Positions 23,501-32,500 of a stretch of DNA of 64,000 nucleotides are shown one piece after another. Position numbers and translations under genes: made by a program. Location: assembly GCA_029204225.1 (NCBI GenBank), contig CM055102.1, positions 30,415,632-30,479,631 of the forward strand. Direction: 5' to 3'. Position 1 is the stretch's first letter. Each line of letters starts with the position of its first letter. Source of the stretch: Diphasiastrum complanatum. Its lineage: Eukaryota; Streptophyta; Lycopodiopsida; Lycopodiales; Lycopodiaceae. The notes under the pieces were generated by a model. It saw only the letters and a program-made list of their open reading frames with translations, was not told where the DNA came from and made no database searches.

Positions 23501-26500
23501 GGAGAATGCTCAGAGAAAACTAGAGCTTTGGAACCCTGCAGAAGTTACTATTGGAGAATTGTAGTTCTCTGGGCATGTAAACAAGCCCTATATGCAGGCT
23601 CTCAAAAGTATGGTATGCGGATCTCGCGAACGAAATCCTTGGAGTCGGATTGTAGGCAAAATATATAAGTCTGTACAAAAACAAAAATATCTTGTTTGAT
23701 AGATCAAACTACGGATAAAAACCTTCTTGGGCGGATTTGGGTAGGCTAGCAGCCTTGGATCTAATCAAGAATGTATCATAGTGTTTTTCTGTTATCTCTA
23801 GCTTATTTGATGTACCCTTTTACCATAATGCATATGTTATGCAAGCAAGAATTTAATTTTGAGTTTAATTTCTTGAGTAATTTCAATTCGCTGAATTTCA
23901 TCTTTCCCAAGCTGCTTGAAGCAACCCCTAAATTGTTAAACAAAAGACTAGAACCTTGTATTAAGCTCCTACCAAATGATTTGAAAAAACCCCAAATCTC
24001 TTTCAAATCTCACAAGAAAAGCAAAAATAACAGGAAGGGGAATTTCAGATTTTCAAAGAGTCGACATGTTGGAATCAAGGTTCAAATTCAGAATCAATTT
24101 GAGTTGATAATTTTTTAATTGCAACTATCTGTCAAATAGTATCGCTCATCATAATTGTTGTCAATTTGCTAAAATTCAATACGGTTCCATGTGATTTCAT
24201 TTACACATAATACGTAAATAAAGATGTTATATAAAGAATCGCTTAATGGCCCAAAACTGGACTGCACTCCTCTTGAAACTCCTGGCAAACTAGGTAAATG
24301 AACTGCTCTTGAAAATACCTTTAATCTGATATCGATATTGGCATAAAAAATCCAAGATCATGTTCCGAAACGTGGGCGGCATCTATGCTATTGTCACACT
24401 CTAGAACAAAATCCATGTTGTTTTCTGATAGAGAGTTATTCTATTTACATGGTTATATTGAACCATATGTTGTGCCAAGGAACCTTGAGACCTAAATCCT
24501 CGACTCATGTCAAAATGACAAACTATAAATTGCAATGAAAACACCCTACTGAAGGAATTACTGTAGAAAGAACAATCATGTAAATAGTTCGAACAAAAAA
24601 AAACTAACAAAACATACTAAGTATCAAAAACTAGTGGAAACTTGAAAATCGTACATTAACGTCTAGATGTCAAAATTATGAACTATATCACAATCCCCTA
24701 TTATAGGAAGAAAAATTATAGGACAAGTTAATCAAATAACACACAAAAAAATGAAACATCAAAAAATAGTAAAACTTGAAAATTAGATGTTTGATTTTTA
24801 GACATTGGAAACAGGGCCTATTAAGTGGAATATGAACACCCTACTATAGGAAGCAAAATAAGCTAATAAAATTTTTAAAAGCTCACAAAAAAATGCATAA
24901 AAGATAATAGTAGCCAACTAAATGCAAGAGACCTAAGTTGTCAAATAAGTGCCACTTCAGCAAGAGAACTGAAGGAACGCAAACAAGTGCTTCACATTTG
25001 GTCCATATATCTTAGTTCCTTTTACACATTACAAGGATCAAACTTCATTCATTACATTACAGGAGGTTCTTAAGCCTATTTTTCATTTAAGATATCAAAT
25101 ACATTAAGATAAACACTAGATGAACCATGGCATACACTATAATTAATAGATATCTAACTTATTTCAAAACTATAACAGCATGTAAGTTGTTGAAGTGGGA
25201 CTGCATTGACAAATTTTGGGAAGTCGTATATTGTCACTATGGATGTCAAGATAACATCTTCAACACTTGTCCCGCTATAAAACATTCATGTTTAGCAACA
25301 AGTATTCAGCCAACCCACGGTTCGTTCCAATGGCATGTCTTCTCTCCCACACCATCACTAGTTGCCAAAAACTGCATTGTCCAAAACACAATAGGTAACA
25401 CTTTCCTACATTCTCAGGGAGGCCATCTTCTAAGCTAGTAATGAAATTGTAAAATCTTCATTGCCCTATAGAAGGATATCCACAAAATGTGCACATAAAA
25501 GGACTAAAAAAAAGGTTCTTCAGCAACAAGATTAATAGTAGCCTCTTCTACATCATCCTTATCCTTTGATTTCTTAGACTTAACAGCTTTCCTCTTGCGA
25601 CATTGATTGGCCCAATGTCCAAGTTTAGTGACACTTGGTATCTCTTTTGCTACCTCTAGAATCACCTTCACTGTCTTCGCATTCTTTTTTATATGAAACA
25701 ATTTCCACTCAGCAAAAAATGTAGCATTGCTTCACTAACATGAATTGAAGTTCTTCTTTATTCCACCTTCCTTTTCAAGCAAAGAAACAACACGTGATTG
25801 ATTTGGAAGGTTATTGAGAGTAAAGATCAAATTGTTATATTCAGCAAGAGTTGCAATTTCTGCAACGTTATGATATCCTCGATATGGATTTGAAGATCAT
25901 ATCTCCAACAAGGAGGAGGACCTAACTTTGCTGATGTTTCATTGAGCAAATCATGGTTTACCCAGGAAGATGTTGAGTTGAAAAGGCCTACAAAAAGCTC
26001 TCAAGTTTGTAGGATCACTTATCCAAATAACCTCATATTATACCAGCCGAAACCAAAAACATAAATACTCATCCTCGGGTGGCCCCTAGATAAGAAGATG
26101 CTAATCTTGGTGAAAAGACAACTTGTCTCCTAATTTGGATTGAAGGCACACGTCACATACAAGGTAGCGGCCAAAACCAAAGATACATAGATAAGAAGAT
26201 GCTAATCTTGGTGTGCAAAAAATACTCCAAATATGTTGTCTCCACAACTTTTCTGCAAAGCTGAAATAGATAACACTTCAGTGACCTTGAAACTTACTAT
26301 GAGAAAGAAAGAGAGAAATGATTTTACCAATTCTAAGACGCGGAAATTGTCGATTACCCTTGAAATTTTGAATTATGTTTCTCATGCTGCCAATTAAAGA
26401 TTTATGTCAGCCATGCTCTCTCTCTCTCTCTCTCTCTCTCTCTCTCTCTCTCTCTCTCTCTCTCTCTCTCTCCGAGACCTAGGTTTCTCTACAGATATTA

Positions 26501-29500: not shown

Positions 29501-32500
29501 GAATCACCATCCCTCATTCCACTGATATCACACTTCGAGGTCATTCACACTACTCTATCTGATCACTCCTTTTTATCCTTCCAATTGGGTTCTATCCCAA
29601 CTCCACGAACCTCATCTCTCTCCTCCATCGACCGTGCTCCCAGATACACCTTCGCTCACCCTTACATCGAAAGTTACCAGGAAGCCCTTGCCTCTTTACT
29701 TCATGACTTCCCACATGATACTACATTAGAGTCACAGGCTTGTTTCCTTACCACCTCACTTCATACAGCTGCCTCGGTTTCCTTTCCATCCACACCCCAT
29801 TGTCGTGCAATCACACTAGCTCGTCCTGTACAGCCTCCATGGTTTGATGATGAGTGTCGTTCACTACACCTCCATGTTACAAGTGCAAGAACACATGATC
29901 CACTTATTCTCTCTACTGCTCATTGATCTCTCCATCGTACACTCCGCCGCAAAAGGCGCGCCTACAAAGAACGTAAAGGTAGAAGCCTCGTTGCTTCCCT
30001 GTTTAGTTCCTCCACAGGCACCTTTTGGCGAGCATTATCCCTCGTACTCCACCCCCTCTTCTTGATGACGTACATGTATGGTCCACCTACGCTACCTCAC
30101 TCTACACCATACCTACTGACTCGCCCATTTCCATTATGAAGACCCACCGCACTAGAGACATAGAAGACCTTGAATGGCACAGGATTATACCATTATCCTA
30201 TTGGCAGTATTAGATCTTTGTTTACTTCATGTTCGTAGTATAGTATATTGGCATTTCATTTCTTTTCTGTTACGAAGACGTTTCACACGCTCCTACTCAC
30301 TTGACATGTACTTTTTTGTCTTATATGCCTATTGGCATGGAAAAGACATTAATAAAATCTTTCTTTCTTTCTTTCTCTCTCTCTCTCTCTCTCTCTCTCT
30401 CTCTCTCTCTCTCTCTCTCTCTCTCTTCCTCCGCTGCACATTTGCCCAAGAGCATCACTATTGGCTCCCTTTTCCAACACCTTAAACATTCAAAGCAACA
30501 TCAACTTCATAATTTGATATTTCAACATACATTCATTATAAACAGCATTTAAAATGCTACGAATTCTATTGCAGTTATTTGACCCAAGAGATTCTCGGGG
30601 ATGGTTAAAATTTAACAATACAAGGTTTGGGAAGGTTGAAAATTTAACCTAAGCACGTTCACTAGATTTTGACCACTTATGACAAATTGACTTTGATTTG
30701 GTAGTTGTGAACAGTCGAAAGCTTAGTCGGATGGAAAACCTTCCGCAAAAGTCTCTAACATGATAATGCAGATAATAACATCCCTATATGACAATACAAA
30801 CTCCAACAAAGTTTTTTGCTAAAATCTTCAGCAAACAAGAGGTCAAAAACAAGTCATTGAGACGTGTTTGGCAGCAGACAAGCTGTGGAACACATCTGAA
30901 GTTTTCGGCAGCAATCACCATCATTTTGTTTTGTGAATCAAATGCCAGCAGATTCTAGGGTTTTGAGCACTAAAAATGAAAGCAACTAGTGGTCAAAATT
31001 TTCCTGCAAAATTGGATGTCACAAAACACTATAAGCAATAATCAAGCTGCAAAATAGAGCTGAGATTTTTAATCACTAACCTGTCGAGATGATGAAAATA
31101 ATCAATGAATCTAATAATGAAGTCATATTATCATAATTCATAGTGAAGATAATTACCCATTATGACCTCCATGGCCGCCTTTAGGCAACAACCGCATCAT
31201 GGCAACCTCTAAATCCAAATCATCATACATCTACAATCAAAAATATTCTGAAATACATGAGTCCTAACCAAACATAATTACAGCTTTTGTTACCTCAAAA
31301 TGCTTAATTGCAAGTGCTCCACATTATCATGCAAATGCTATAGCACCTGATTAAGAATTAAAAGGTCAAAAGCTAAAAAAACGTTTACCACAAGTACGTG
31401 CTCAACCGGTATCTTGTAATATTTGGCAAGAGGCCCAACCTTCAATACAAGCAGAATATTGTCAGTCATTTCCAAGTTCCTTTACAAGGATGAGGAGCCT
31501 TTGCAAGTTTAGCTTTAAAGTGACATTGTGCTATTCATCAATTTATTTGTTCCAAGCTTGATTGCATCACGATACCCATGATATACATGTGTGGGCATGC
31601 ATGTGTTGATTCTTTCTGTATAAAATCTCAATCGCCAATACCAAAATACATAATAATAACAGAGTAGATCTAACACTTACAGATTCTCCACTTAGATTGA
31701 CATAAGTCTGTGGTTTGGCAAGAAGGACAACTGTATCCCCAATTTTCCCTGCACATTAAACTTGTAGAAGGCTACATATAAGGAATTTGACATAAGATCT
31801 AGTTACAGAAAACTACTACTTGTAAAGATATGTCATTCTAAAACACATCCTACTACAAAGGTGCAAAAAGCTGCCTATTTCTAGCCATCTATAATTGTTA
31901 GGAGGTTTACACGGAGCAGCCGCAAGCTTATGAGACCAAGGCAAAGAGTATCTGGTTTGTAGGCTTCAGAAAGCCCTTTATGGTTTGAAGCAAGTGCCTA
32001 GGGCATGGTACAGTCGTAGGGATGACTACTTTACAAAACGGCTCTTTGAAAAGAGTAAGTATGACTCTAATTAATGTCTTCAGGGTAAAAAGAAATTGTC
32101 ATTGTTGTTCTTTATGGTGATGACCTAGTCATCACAACTAGCAATAACAATCTTAATGCTAAAAATAATTCCCATGAAAAATTGACGTTTACTACATTAG
32201 TGCCTTAGAATAGAGGTAAAATCTTTTTCTAATATTGAAGAGATTCAATATGCAAGAGAGCAAGCCAAAGCAACAAGCCATCTGAGTATGAAGGTACACC
32301 ATTTGCACCTGAGACACTCTATCAACAGTTGGTGGGCAACCACATCTATCTTACTACTATTGGACTAGACATCACTTACGCAGTCTAGTCAATTGATGAG
32401 TAAGCCTACTAAGGCTCATTAAAAAGCTGCCCGACGTATGTAAGAGGAACAGTGAGTTACGAGACTAGACACATTCATGATGGTGACTGAGGATTATACA

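What the first reader, a model, noticed from the sequence alone, without database searches (positions are those of the whole stretch)
26416..30425. Non-LTR retrotransposon family sitting inside (CT)n microsatellites, with a CT tail instead of poly(A)
Two copies with the same 3' terminus (GGCATGGAAAAGACATTAAT and AAA) are each bordered by (CT)n on both sides: 26416-26472 / 28372-28559 and 28689-28754 / 30361-30425. The 5' breaks differ (one in RT, one before the endonuclease), yet both fall in CT. Tails go TTTCTTTC then CT. The simplest reading is target-primed insertion into TC/GA repeats. Microsatellite-targeted LINEs are known in animals (Tx1-group families); I know of none well described in plants.
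Basis: partly seen in the sequence, partly recalled or inferred. Interest (0 to 1): 0.75.

Follow-up and report, generated by a model that had tools for sequence, protein, structure and literature searches.

The report
Plant LINEs landing in CT repeats
A family of copy-and-paste jumping genes in what is probably a plant genome lands preferentially, though not always, in runs of the DNA letters CT, including runs beside earlier copies, so copies pile up; such targeting is known for some animal elements and some plant DNA transposons.

Summary
In detail: both window copies are APE-type LINE fragments with one 3' hairpin type and CT on both sides. In the source genome (1.74 Gb) 1015 of 1582 + strand 3' termini run into (CT)7 within 28 nt; a family with an unrelated (AATTCT)n tail does so in 25 of 42. 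Of 18 independent intact 5' ends, 11 have CT>=14 within 60 nt of ORF1; background 0.1%. Of 17 hand-read truncated 5' junctions only 6 are in CT>=14: a preference, not strict specificity. CT preceded insertion in two repeat families with LINE-free copies: an LTR with 8-9 nt of native CT, where no CT tail was added, and a repeat with 43-92 nt. The 'CT tail' is a (TTTC)n tail entering target CT. Copies stack mostly in one orientation. Most likely mechanism, inferred: target-primed reverse transcription from GA ends annealed to the pyrimidine tail. Tx1 membership is not shown; clade and host name are unresolved.

The parts
26416..26472 (+). (CT)n run, 57 nt, at the 5' junction of copy 1
26473..28371 (+). 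LINE copy 1, 5'-truncated inside the RT; RT part open to 27177, then frameshifted; C-terminal CxxC..H..C region; 3' UTR
   Evidence: RVT_1 in relatives
28332..28345 (+). 3' hairpin of copy 1 (ATGCC TTTT GGCAT); the stem covaries among 13 aligned 3' ends
28365..28373 (+). pyrimidine tail of copy 1, C(TTTC)2
28372..28559 (+). (CT)n run, 188 nt, at the 3' junction of copy 1
28688..28754 (+). (CT)n run, 67 nt, at the 5' junction of copy 2
28755..30357 (+). LINE copy 2, more divergent: starts just 5' of the APE endonuclease (28846-29599), part of the linker, RT mostly missing, 3' UTR
30325..30338 (+). 3' hairpin of copy 2 (ATGCC TATT GGCAT)
30358..30373 (+). (TTTC)n tail of copy 2
30374..30426 (+). 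(CT)n run, 53 nt, at the 3' junction of copy 2

Best explanation
These are copies of a multi-family group of LINEs: ORF1 with a predicted coiled coil (by eye), then ORF2 with APE endonuclease, RT and a C-terminal CxxC..H..C motif, then a covarying 3' hairpin followed by GACATTAATA and a pyrimidine-rich tail. They insert preferentially into CT/GA runs, which can be as short as 8-9 nt. Inferred mechanism: the endonuclease nicks the GA strand inside the run, the freed ...GAGA 3' end anneals to the (UUUC)n/(UC)n tail held by the RT through the hairpin, and target-primed reverse transcription starts there. At the 5' side the cDNA joins the upper-strand CT run, often at CT-rich stretches of the short 5' leader, which suggests microhomology. 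Because CT remains beside each element, the next can land in the same run in the same orientation, giving head-to-tail stacks. Shown: the association, CT in LINE-free copies of two repeat families, independence from tail sequence, orientation bias, the covarying hairpin. Inferred: nick position, annealing, microhomology, RNA binding. Part of the long CT arrays is probably later microsatellite expansion.
For: 3' ends: 1015 of 1582 exact termini on the + strand are followed within 28 nt by (CT)7. In 40 copies sampled from scaffold C1, 28 of 40 have CT>=14, 32 of 40 have CT>=6 directly after the tail, and 0 of 40 have a GA, CA or AT run of 14 there. A family with an unrelated tail: 25 of 42. Intact 5' ends: CT>=14 within 60 nt in 11 of 18 independent loci and within 200 nt in 13 of 18, against 0.1% and 0.4% background. 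LTR site: 9 LINE-free copies (8 read TCTCTCTCT-TTAG, 1 a variant); the filled copy resumes at TCTTTAG after the TTTC tail. Second repeat: 3 LINE-free copies with 92, 43 and 77 nt of CT; two loci with a LINE tail running into CT at that point. CT>=14 runs lie on the index LINE's sense strand 30 to 1 in 15 loci. A next LINE detectable within about 200-230 nt downstream is in the same orientation in 10 of 40 and opposite in 0 of 40. Hairpin: 95.4% of cells paired, 3 of 5 pairs changed on both sides, covariation score reached by 0 of 500 shuffles.
Against: 11 of 17 truncated 5' junctions are not in CT>=14; three of these (L094, L118, L123) have 7-11 nt of CT at another LINE's tail and one (L091) looks by eye like an LTR end. 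Only 5 of the 17 have CT>=14 on both sides. In the best-hit sample 2 of 8 independent truncated non-window copies are in CT>=14. 36% of 3' termini have no (CT)7 nearby. No target-site duplication outside CT was seen by eye, and none could be measured inside CT. At the LTR site the 5' CT is about 22 nt with one interruption against 8-9 native, so some CT is added by the element or by later expansion. Opposite-oriented LINE segments occur in L026 and L027. The genome-wide GA control did not complete.
Confidence: 0.78

Rival explanations
1. The CT is made by the element: the RT slips on its (UUUC)n/(UC)n tail and writes CT at the 3' end, and 5' CT is either the element's own 5' end or the CT tail of an earlier copy.
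For: 5' CT at the LTR site is longer than native. Several 5' CT runs follow another LINE's tail (L040, L046, L049, L051, L056). Six of 17 truncated copies have CT>=14 at the 3' side only (L093, L094, L116, L123, L125, L128). RTE elements that generate microsatellite families are reported in Lepidoptera (PMC2887409, search listing).
Against: LINE-free copies of the same repeats already carry the CT. Nothing is added 3' of the tail at the LTR site. Families with different tails enter CT. Truncated copies with no LINE directly upstream still have 5' CT (L081, L113, L010).
Confidence: 0.15
2. No targeting: CT runs are recombination or expansion hot spots and LINEs are merely retained or rearranged there.
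For: Many chimeric and internally deleted copies. Another multi-copy sequence also has a fixed end at CT.
Against: 3' ends with the tail joined to CT, an orientation bias of 30 to 1, and a LINE precisely inside an LTR's CT run are insertion signatures.
Confidence: 0.07

Closest known systems
Animal microsatellite-targeting LINEs: Kibi and others of the Tx1 group (target recalled; only the name was seen, in passages of PMC2684134); Togen, (TG)n-specific, related to NeSL, and some HERO families (passages of PMC4640811)
   Same: LINEs that insert into dinucleotide or other microsatellites
   Different: NeSL-related and HERO elements carry a restriction-like endonuclease; here it is APE. Here the preference is partial and the host is probably a plant. 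The clade was not resolved.
UnaL2 and other 'stringent' LINEs, and one maize/sorghum L1 lineage with a covarying 3' hairpin (section 4 of PMC3747384)
   Same: Covarying 3' hairpin; a short 3' repeat tail other than poly(A) (UnaL2 ends in TGTAA)
   Different: According to that section almost all flowering-plant L1 LINEs end in poly(A) and plant RTE LINEs in (TTG)n or (TTGATG)n; the tails and CT preference here match neither
Plant microsatellite-targeting DNA transposons: SaTar MULEs (PMC5907723, abstract and passages), MuTAnT in TA repeats (PMC4486113, search listing), Micron in rice (seen as a reference title)
   Same: Elements assembled at microsatellites in plants, for SaTar in linear arrays
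   Different: Those are DNA transposons, not LINEs
RTE elements that generate microsatellite families in Lepidoptera (PMC2887409, search listing)
   Same: A LINE tied to microsatellites
   Different: There the element is said to generate the repeat; here LINE-free copies already have it
SART1 telomere-repeat LINE (PMC7265360, search listing; clade from PMC3747384)
   Same: A LINE in a simple tandem repeat
   Different: Target (TTAGG)n, R1 clade; no membership test was run

Membership tests
LINE (non-LTR retrotransposon), APE type | APE endonuclease plus RT, no LTR | tested here: met
   Exo_endo_phos and RVT_1 in relatives; order APE-linker-RT along single copies such as L018 and L020
LINE (non-LTR retrotransposon), APE type | 5' truncation with a constant 3' end | tested here: met
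   Exact 3' terminus 1582 times on each strand; 44 matches to an intact 5' end, 28 reaching query position 26 or less
Microsatellite-targeted LINE | Repeat present at the site before insertion | tested here: met
   Two repeat families with LINE-free copies; inferred from other copies of the repeat, not from the same allele
Microsatellite-targeted LINE | Most copies bounded by the repeat on both sides | tested here: not met
   3' 64%; intact 5' 11 of 18; but truncated 5' 6 of 17 and both sides 5 of 17
L1/Tx1 group (Kibi-like) | RT groups with L1/Tx1 | tested here: inconclusive
   Profile scores 83.4 bits against an R2 and 59.5 against human L1; no named Tx1 sequence available, no tree built
Flowering-plant L1 or RTE as described in PMC3747384 | Poly(A), or (TTG)n/(TTGATG)n, 3' end | tested here: not met
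   (TTTC)n and (AATTCT)n tails
RLE clades (R2, NeSL, HERO, CRE, R4) | Restriction-like endonuclease instead of APE | tested here: not met
   APE found N-terminal to the RT
Plant L1 / I group with RNase H | RNase H domain | tested here: not met
   No RNase H model in Pfam scans of five ORF pieces; copies are decayed, so absence is weak evidence

The most novel reading that the evidence does not exclude
A LINE superfamily, probably of a lycophyte, has evolved endonuclease and tail preference for GA/CT runs and, by leaving or lengthening CT at each landing, builds its own next targets, so that CT microsatellites and LINE stacks co-expand across the genome; unrelated elements exploit the same runs.
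Probability: 0.3. Interest if true: 0.7.

Novelty: new variant of a known kind. Interest (0 to 1): 0.55.

Why it matters
Microsatellite-targeting LINEs are reported from animals; the rows listed by my searches of the open library (lists capped) include plant DNA transposons with this habit but no plant LINE. If right, it explains many CT microsatellites in this genome as landing sites, and offers a natural APE endonuclease and tail pair with a simple target, over three thousand exact 3' termini and LINE-free copies of the sites, for testing how tail-target pairing steers a LINE.

Tried and rejected
Rejected: CT as a purely templated tail (see rivals). Dropped as truncations: L015, L024 and the L022/L023/L025 group, whose non-CT 5' breaks are later insertions or chimeras inside longer copies. 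Led nowhere: ORF1 against Pfam and PDB (only weak matches); APE against PDB (no match); window flanks A1 and B2 each matched only themselves among the scored places and B1 gave none; the L081 site has a second, allelic copy with the same flank spacing (418 and 400 nt) and the L017 flank a second copy, also filled. A rubisco search gave three short pieces and did not identify the host. No RT tree was built for lack of named reference sequences. Host: 23 scaffolds of 42-102 Mb and 1.74 Gb (scaffolds C16 and C20 sized in none or later calls) fit Diphasiastrum complanatum by recalled chromosome number; no call confirms it.
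Full report
OBSERVATION. The window holds two LINE fragments on the + strand, each between CT runs, at the stated places. Copy 1 starts in the RT and copy 2 just before the APE endonuclease, with most of its RT missing. A small correction: 30358-30373 is mostly TTTC units and CT starts at 30374. Random window positions outside the finding have CT>=14 ending within 60 nt upstream in 40 of 37,230 draws.

WHAT IT IS. The source genome (1.7447 Gb, 5176 contigs) was searched. 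Scaffold lengths seen put C1-C23 at 101.6 down to 42.5 Mb and C24 at 10.9 Mb. The 18-nt 3' terminus occurs 1582 times on each strand. A 212-nt 3' query had 1743 candidates, of which 40 were scored. A query from an intact 5' end had 44 matches, 28 of them reaching query position 26 or less. Longer copies show a short leader, ORF1 with a proline-rich N-terminus and coiled coil (by eye), then APE, linker, RT and a C-terminal CxxC..H..C motif. ORF1 has no significant Pfam or PDB match; by eye its C-terminal half recalls L1 ORF1, a lead only. RT scores: 63.9 bits for an R2 and 39.9 for human L1 with one sequence, 83.4 and 59.5 with a profile of five rows, the first a composite. So membership in the L1/Tx1 group is not shown. 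The 3' end forms a hairpin before GACATTAATA; in 13 aligned 3' ends 95.4% of cells pair, three of five pairs change on both sides, and 0 of 500 shuffles reach the covariation score. Tails differ by family: (TTTC)n, (AATTCT)n, ATACATTTT and others.

THE 3' SIDE. On the + strand 1015 of 1582 termini reach (CT)7 within 28 nt. The - strand count is inflated by overlapping matches and not used. The (AATTCT)n family: 25 of 42 on the + strand. Two systematic samples of 20 (every fifth of the first 100 listed places, all on C1) gave 28 of 40 with CT>=14, 32 of 40 with CT>=6 directly after the tail, 5 of 40 with fewer than 4 pyrimidines, and 0 of 40 with GA, CA or AT runs of 14.

THE 5' SIDE. I examined 23 sequences with the ORF1 start: 22 of the 28 places above and one starting at query position 31; six of the 28 were not fetched. 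After pairing allelic copies 18 are independent; CT>=14 lies within 60 nt of the start codon in 11 and within 200 nt in 13. The five others are L024, L039, L043, L050 and L054; L024, L043 and L054 sit directly at another LINE's tail (for L024). L017, with a different leader, is also preceded by a (CT)n run and is not among the 18. Truncated junctions could be read by hand in 17 of the 40 sampled copies: 6 in CT>=14 (L081, L092, L096, L113, L115, L119), 11 not (L091, L093, L094, L116, L117, L118, L120, L122, L123, L125, L128). L115 (CT between two LINE pieces) and L128 (upstream edge unclear) are judgement calls. L094, L118 and L123 have 7-11 nt of CT at another LINE's tail. Of the 6, five also have CT>=14 at the 3' side; of the 11, six do. 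In the best-hit sample (20 fetched loci, 15 independent, plus the window), two of eight independent truncated copies outside the window are in CT>=14 (L010, L019) and six are not (L009, L013, L016, L021, L027, L028). So the preference is strong against background but partial.

LINE-FREE SITES. The copy on C5 with its 5' end in L044 and 3' end in L109 lies in a high-copy repeat (31 rows match its flank, in a capped list). I take it for an LTR from a TATA-like box and a TGGTATCAGAGC primer-site motif (recalled) after some copies. Ten other copies were fetched; L099 is itself a filled or rearranged relative, nine are LINE-free: eight read TCTCTCTCT-TTAG, one a variant. In the filled copy about 22 nt of CT with one interruption precedes the LINE and the LTR resumes at TCTTTAG right after the TTTC tail. 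About 3.2 kb in the middle of this copy was not read; that both ends belong to one element rests on the matching LTR halves. So a LINE entered an 8-9 nt CT run, with no CT tail added and some 5' CT gained. Second: three LINE-free copies of another repeat (L144, L145, L147) share both flanks around 92, 43 and 77 nt of CT; at two other loci (L086, L146; different LINE subfamilies by their 3' ends) a LINE tail runs into CT and the same right flank. Their left flanks were not read. A third, L148 against L087, is similar but not exact. These are other copies of the repeats, not empty alleles of the same locus.

STACKING. In 15 independent long loci CT>=14 runs lie on the index LINE's sense strand 30 to 1. 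Within about 200-230 nt downstream of the 40 sampled copies another LINE detectable by DNA match follows in the same orientation in 10 and in the opposite in 0. In the long loci 26 LINE segments share the index orientation and 3, in L026 and L027, do not.

MECHANISM. Most likely a GA-strand nick in a CT run and priming on the pyrimidine tail, with 5' joining helped by CT microhomology (several intact 5' ends join at the CTCTCTCAG of the leader); these steps are inferred. Long arrays probably also grow as microsatellites, and slippage may add CT at some 3' ends.

KNOWN AND NEW. Passages of PMC4640811 report (TG)n-specific Togen families and some microsatellite-specific HERO families. PMC5907723 (abstract and passages) describes arrays of microsatellite-targeting MULEs in plants. 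PMC2887409 (search listing) reports microsatellite families generated by RTE elements in Lepidoptera. Section 4 of PMC3747384 gives flowering-plant LINE tails as poly(A) or (TTG)n types. The rows listed (25 of 284, 20 of 2,547, 15 of 74, 1 of 1 and 12 of 37 papers) show no plant LINE with this habit. Most subscription papers are not in that library, and I did not see the 2004 cross-genome survey cited in PMC4640811. I rate it a new variant of a known kind.

Noticed in passing
L132-L143, L150-L152 (several scaffolds): A multi-copy non-LINE sequence with a nearly fixed start (GGACTCTACTAGATGG...) is preceded by a CT run at 12 of 12 fetched loci (one with CA between); the flank beyond CT was seen in 9, two of them alike. 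It may be another CT-targeting element, for instance SaTar-like. A 13th (L131) has a LINE tail there.
   Followed up: partly
window 22138-22184 and 37395-37491: Long AG and CT runs in the window with no LINE found beside them.
   Followed up: partly
window 796-2759 and 44221-46986: Series of direct repeats at 80-93% identity about 43.4-44.2 kb apart, probably two copies of one element.
   Followed up: no
window 52379-52927 and 62769-63503: Copia-type LTR retrotransposon pieces (RVT_2; Retrotran_gag_2).
   Followed up: partly
window 59753-60379: Weak, below cut-off Pfam match to S-adenosylmethionine decarboxylase over a 25-nt tandem array.
   Followed up: no
L094 and L119: Tiny LINE copies of about 10-30 nt of 3' end, each after a long CT run: extreme 5' truncations.
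   Followed up: partly
L098-L107: High-copy LTR-like repeat with a short native CT run, the site of a LINE in L044/L109 and perhaps L099.
   Followed up: partly
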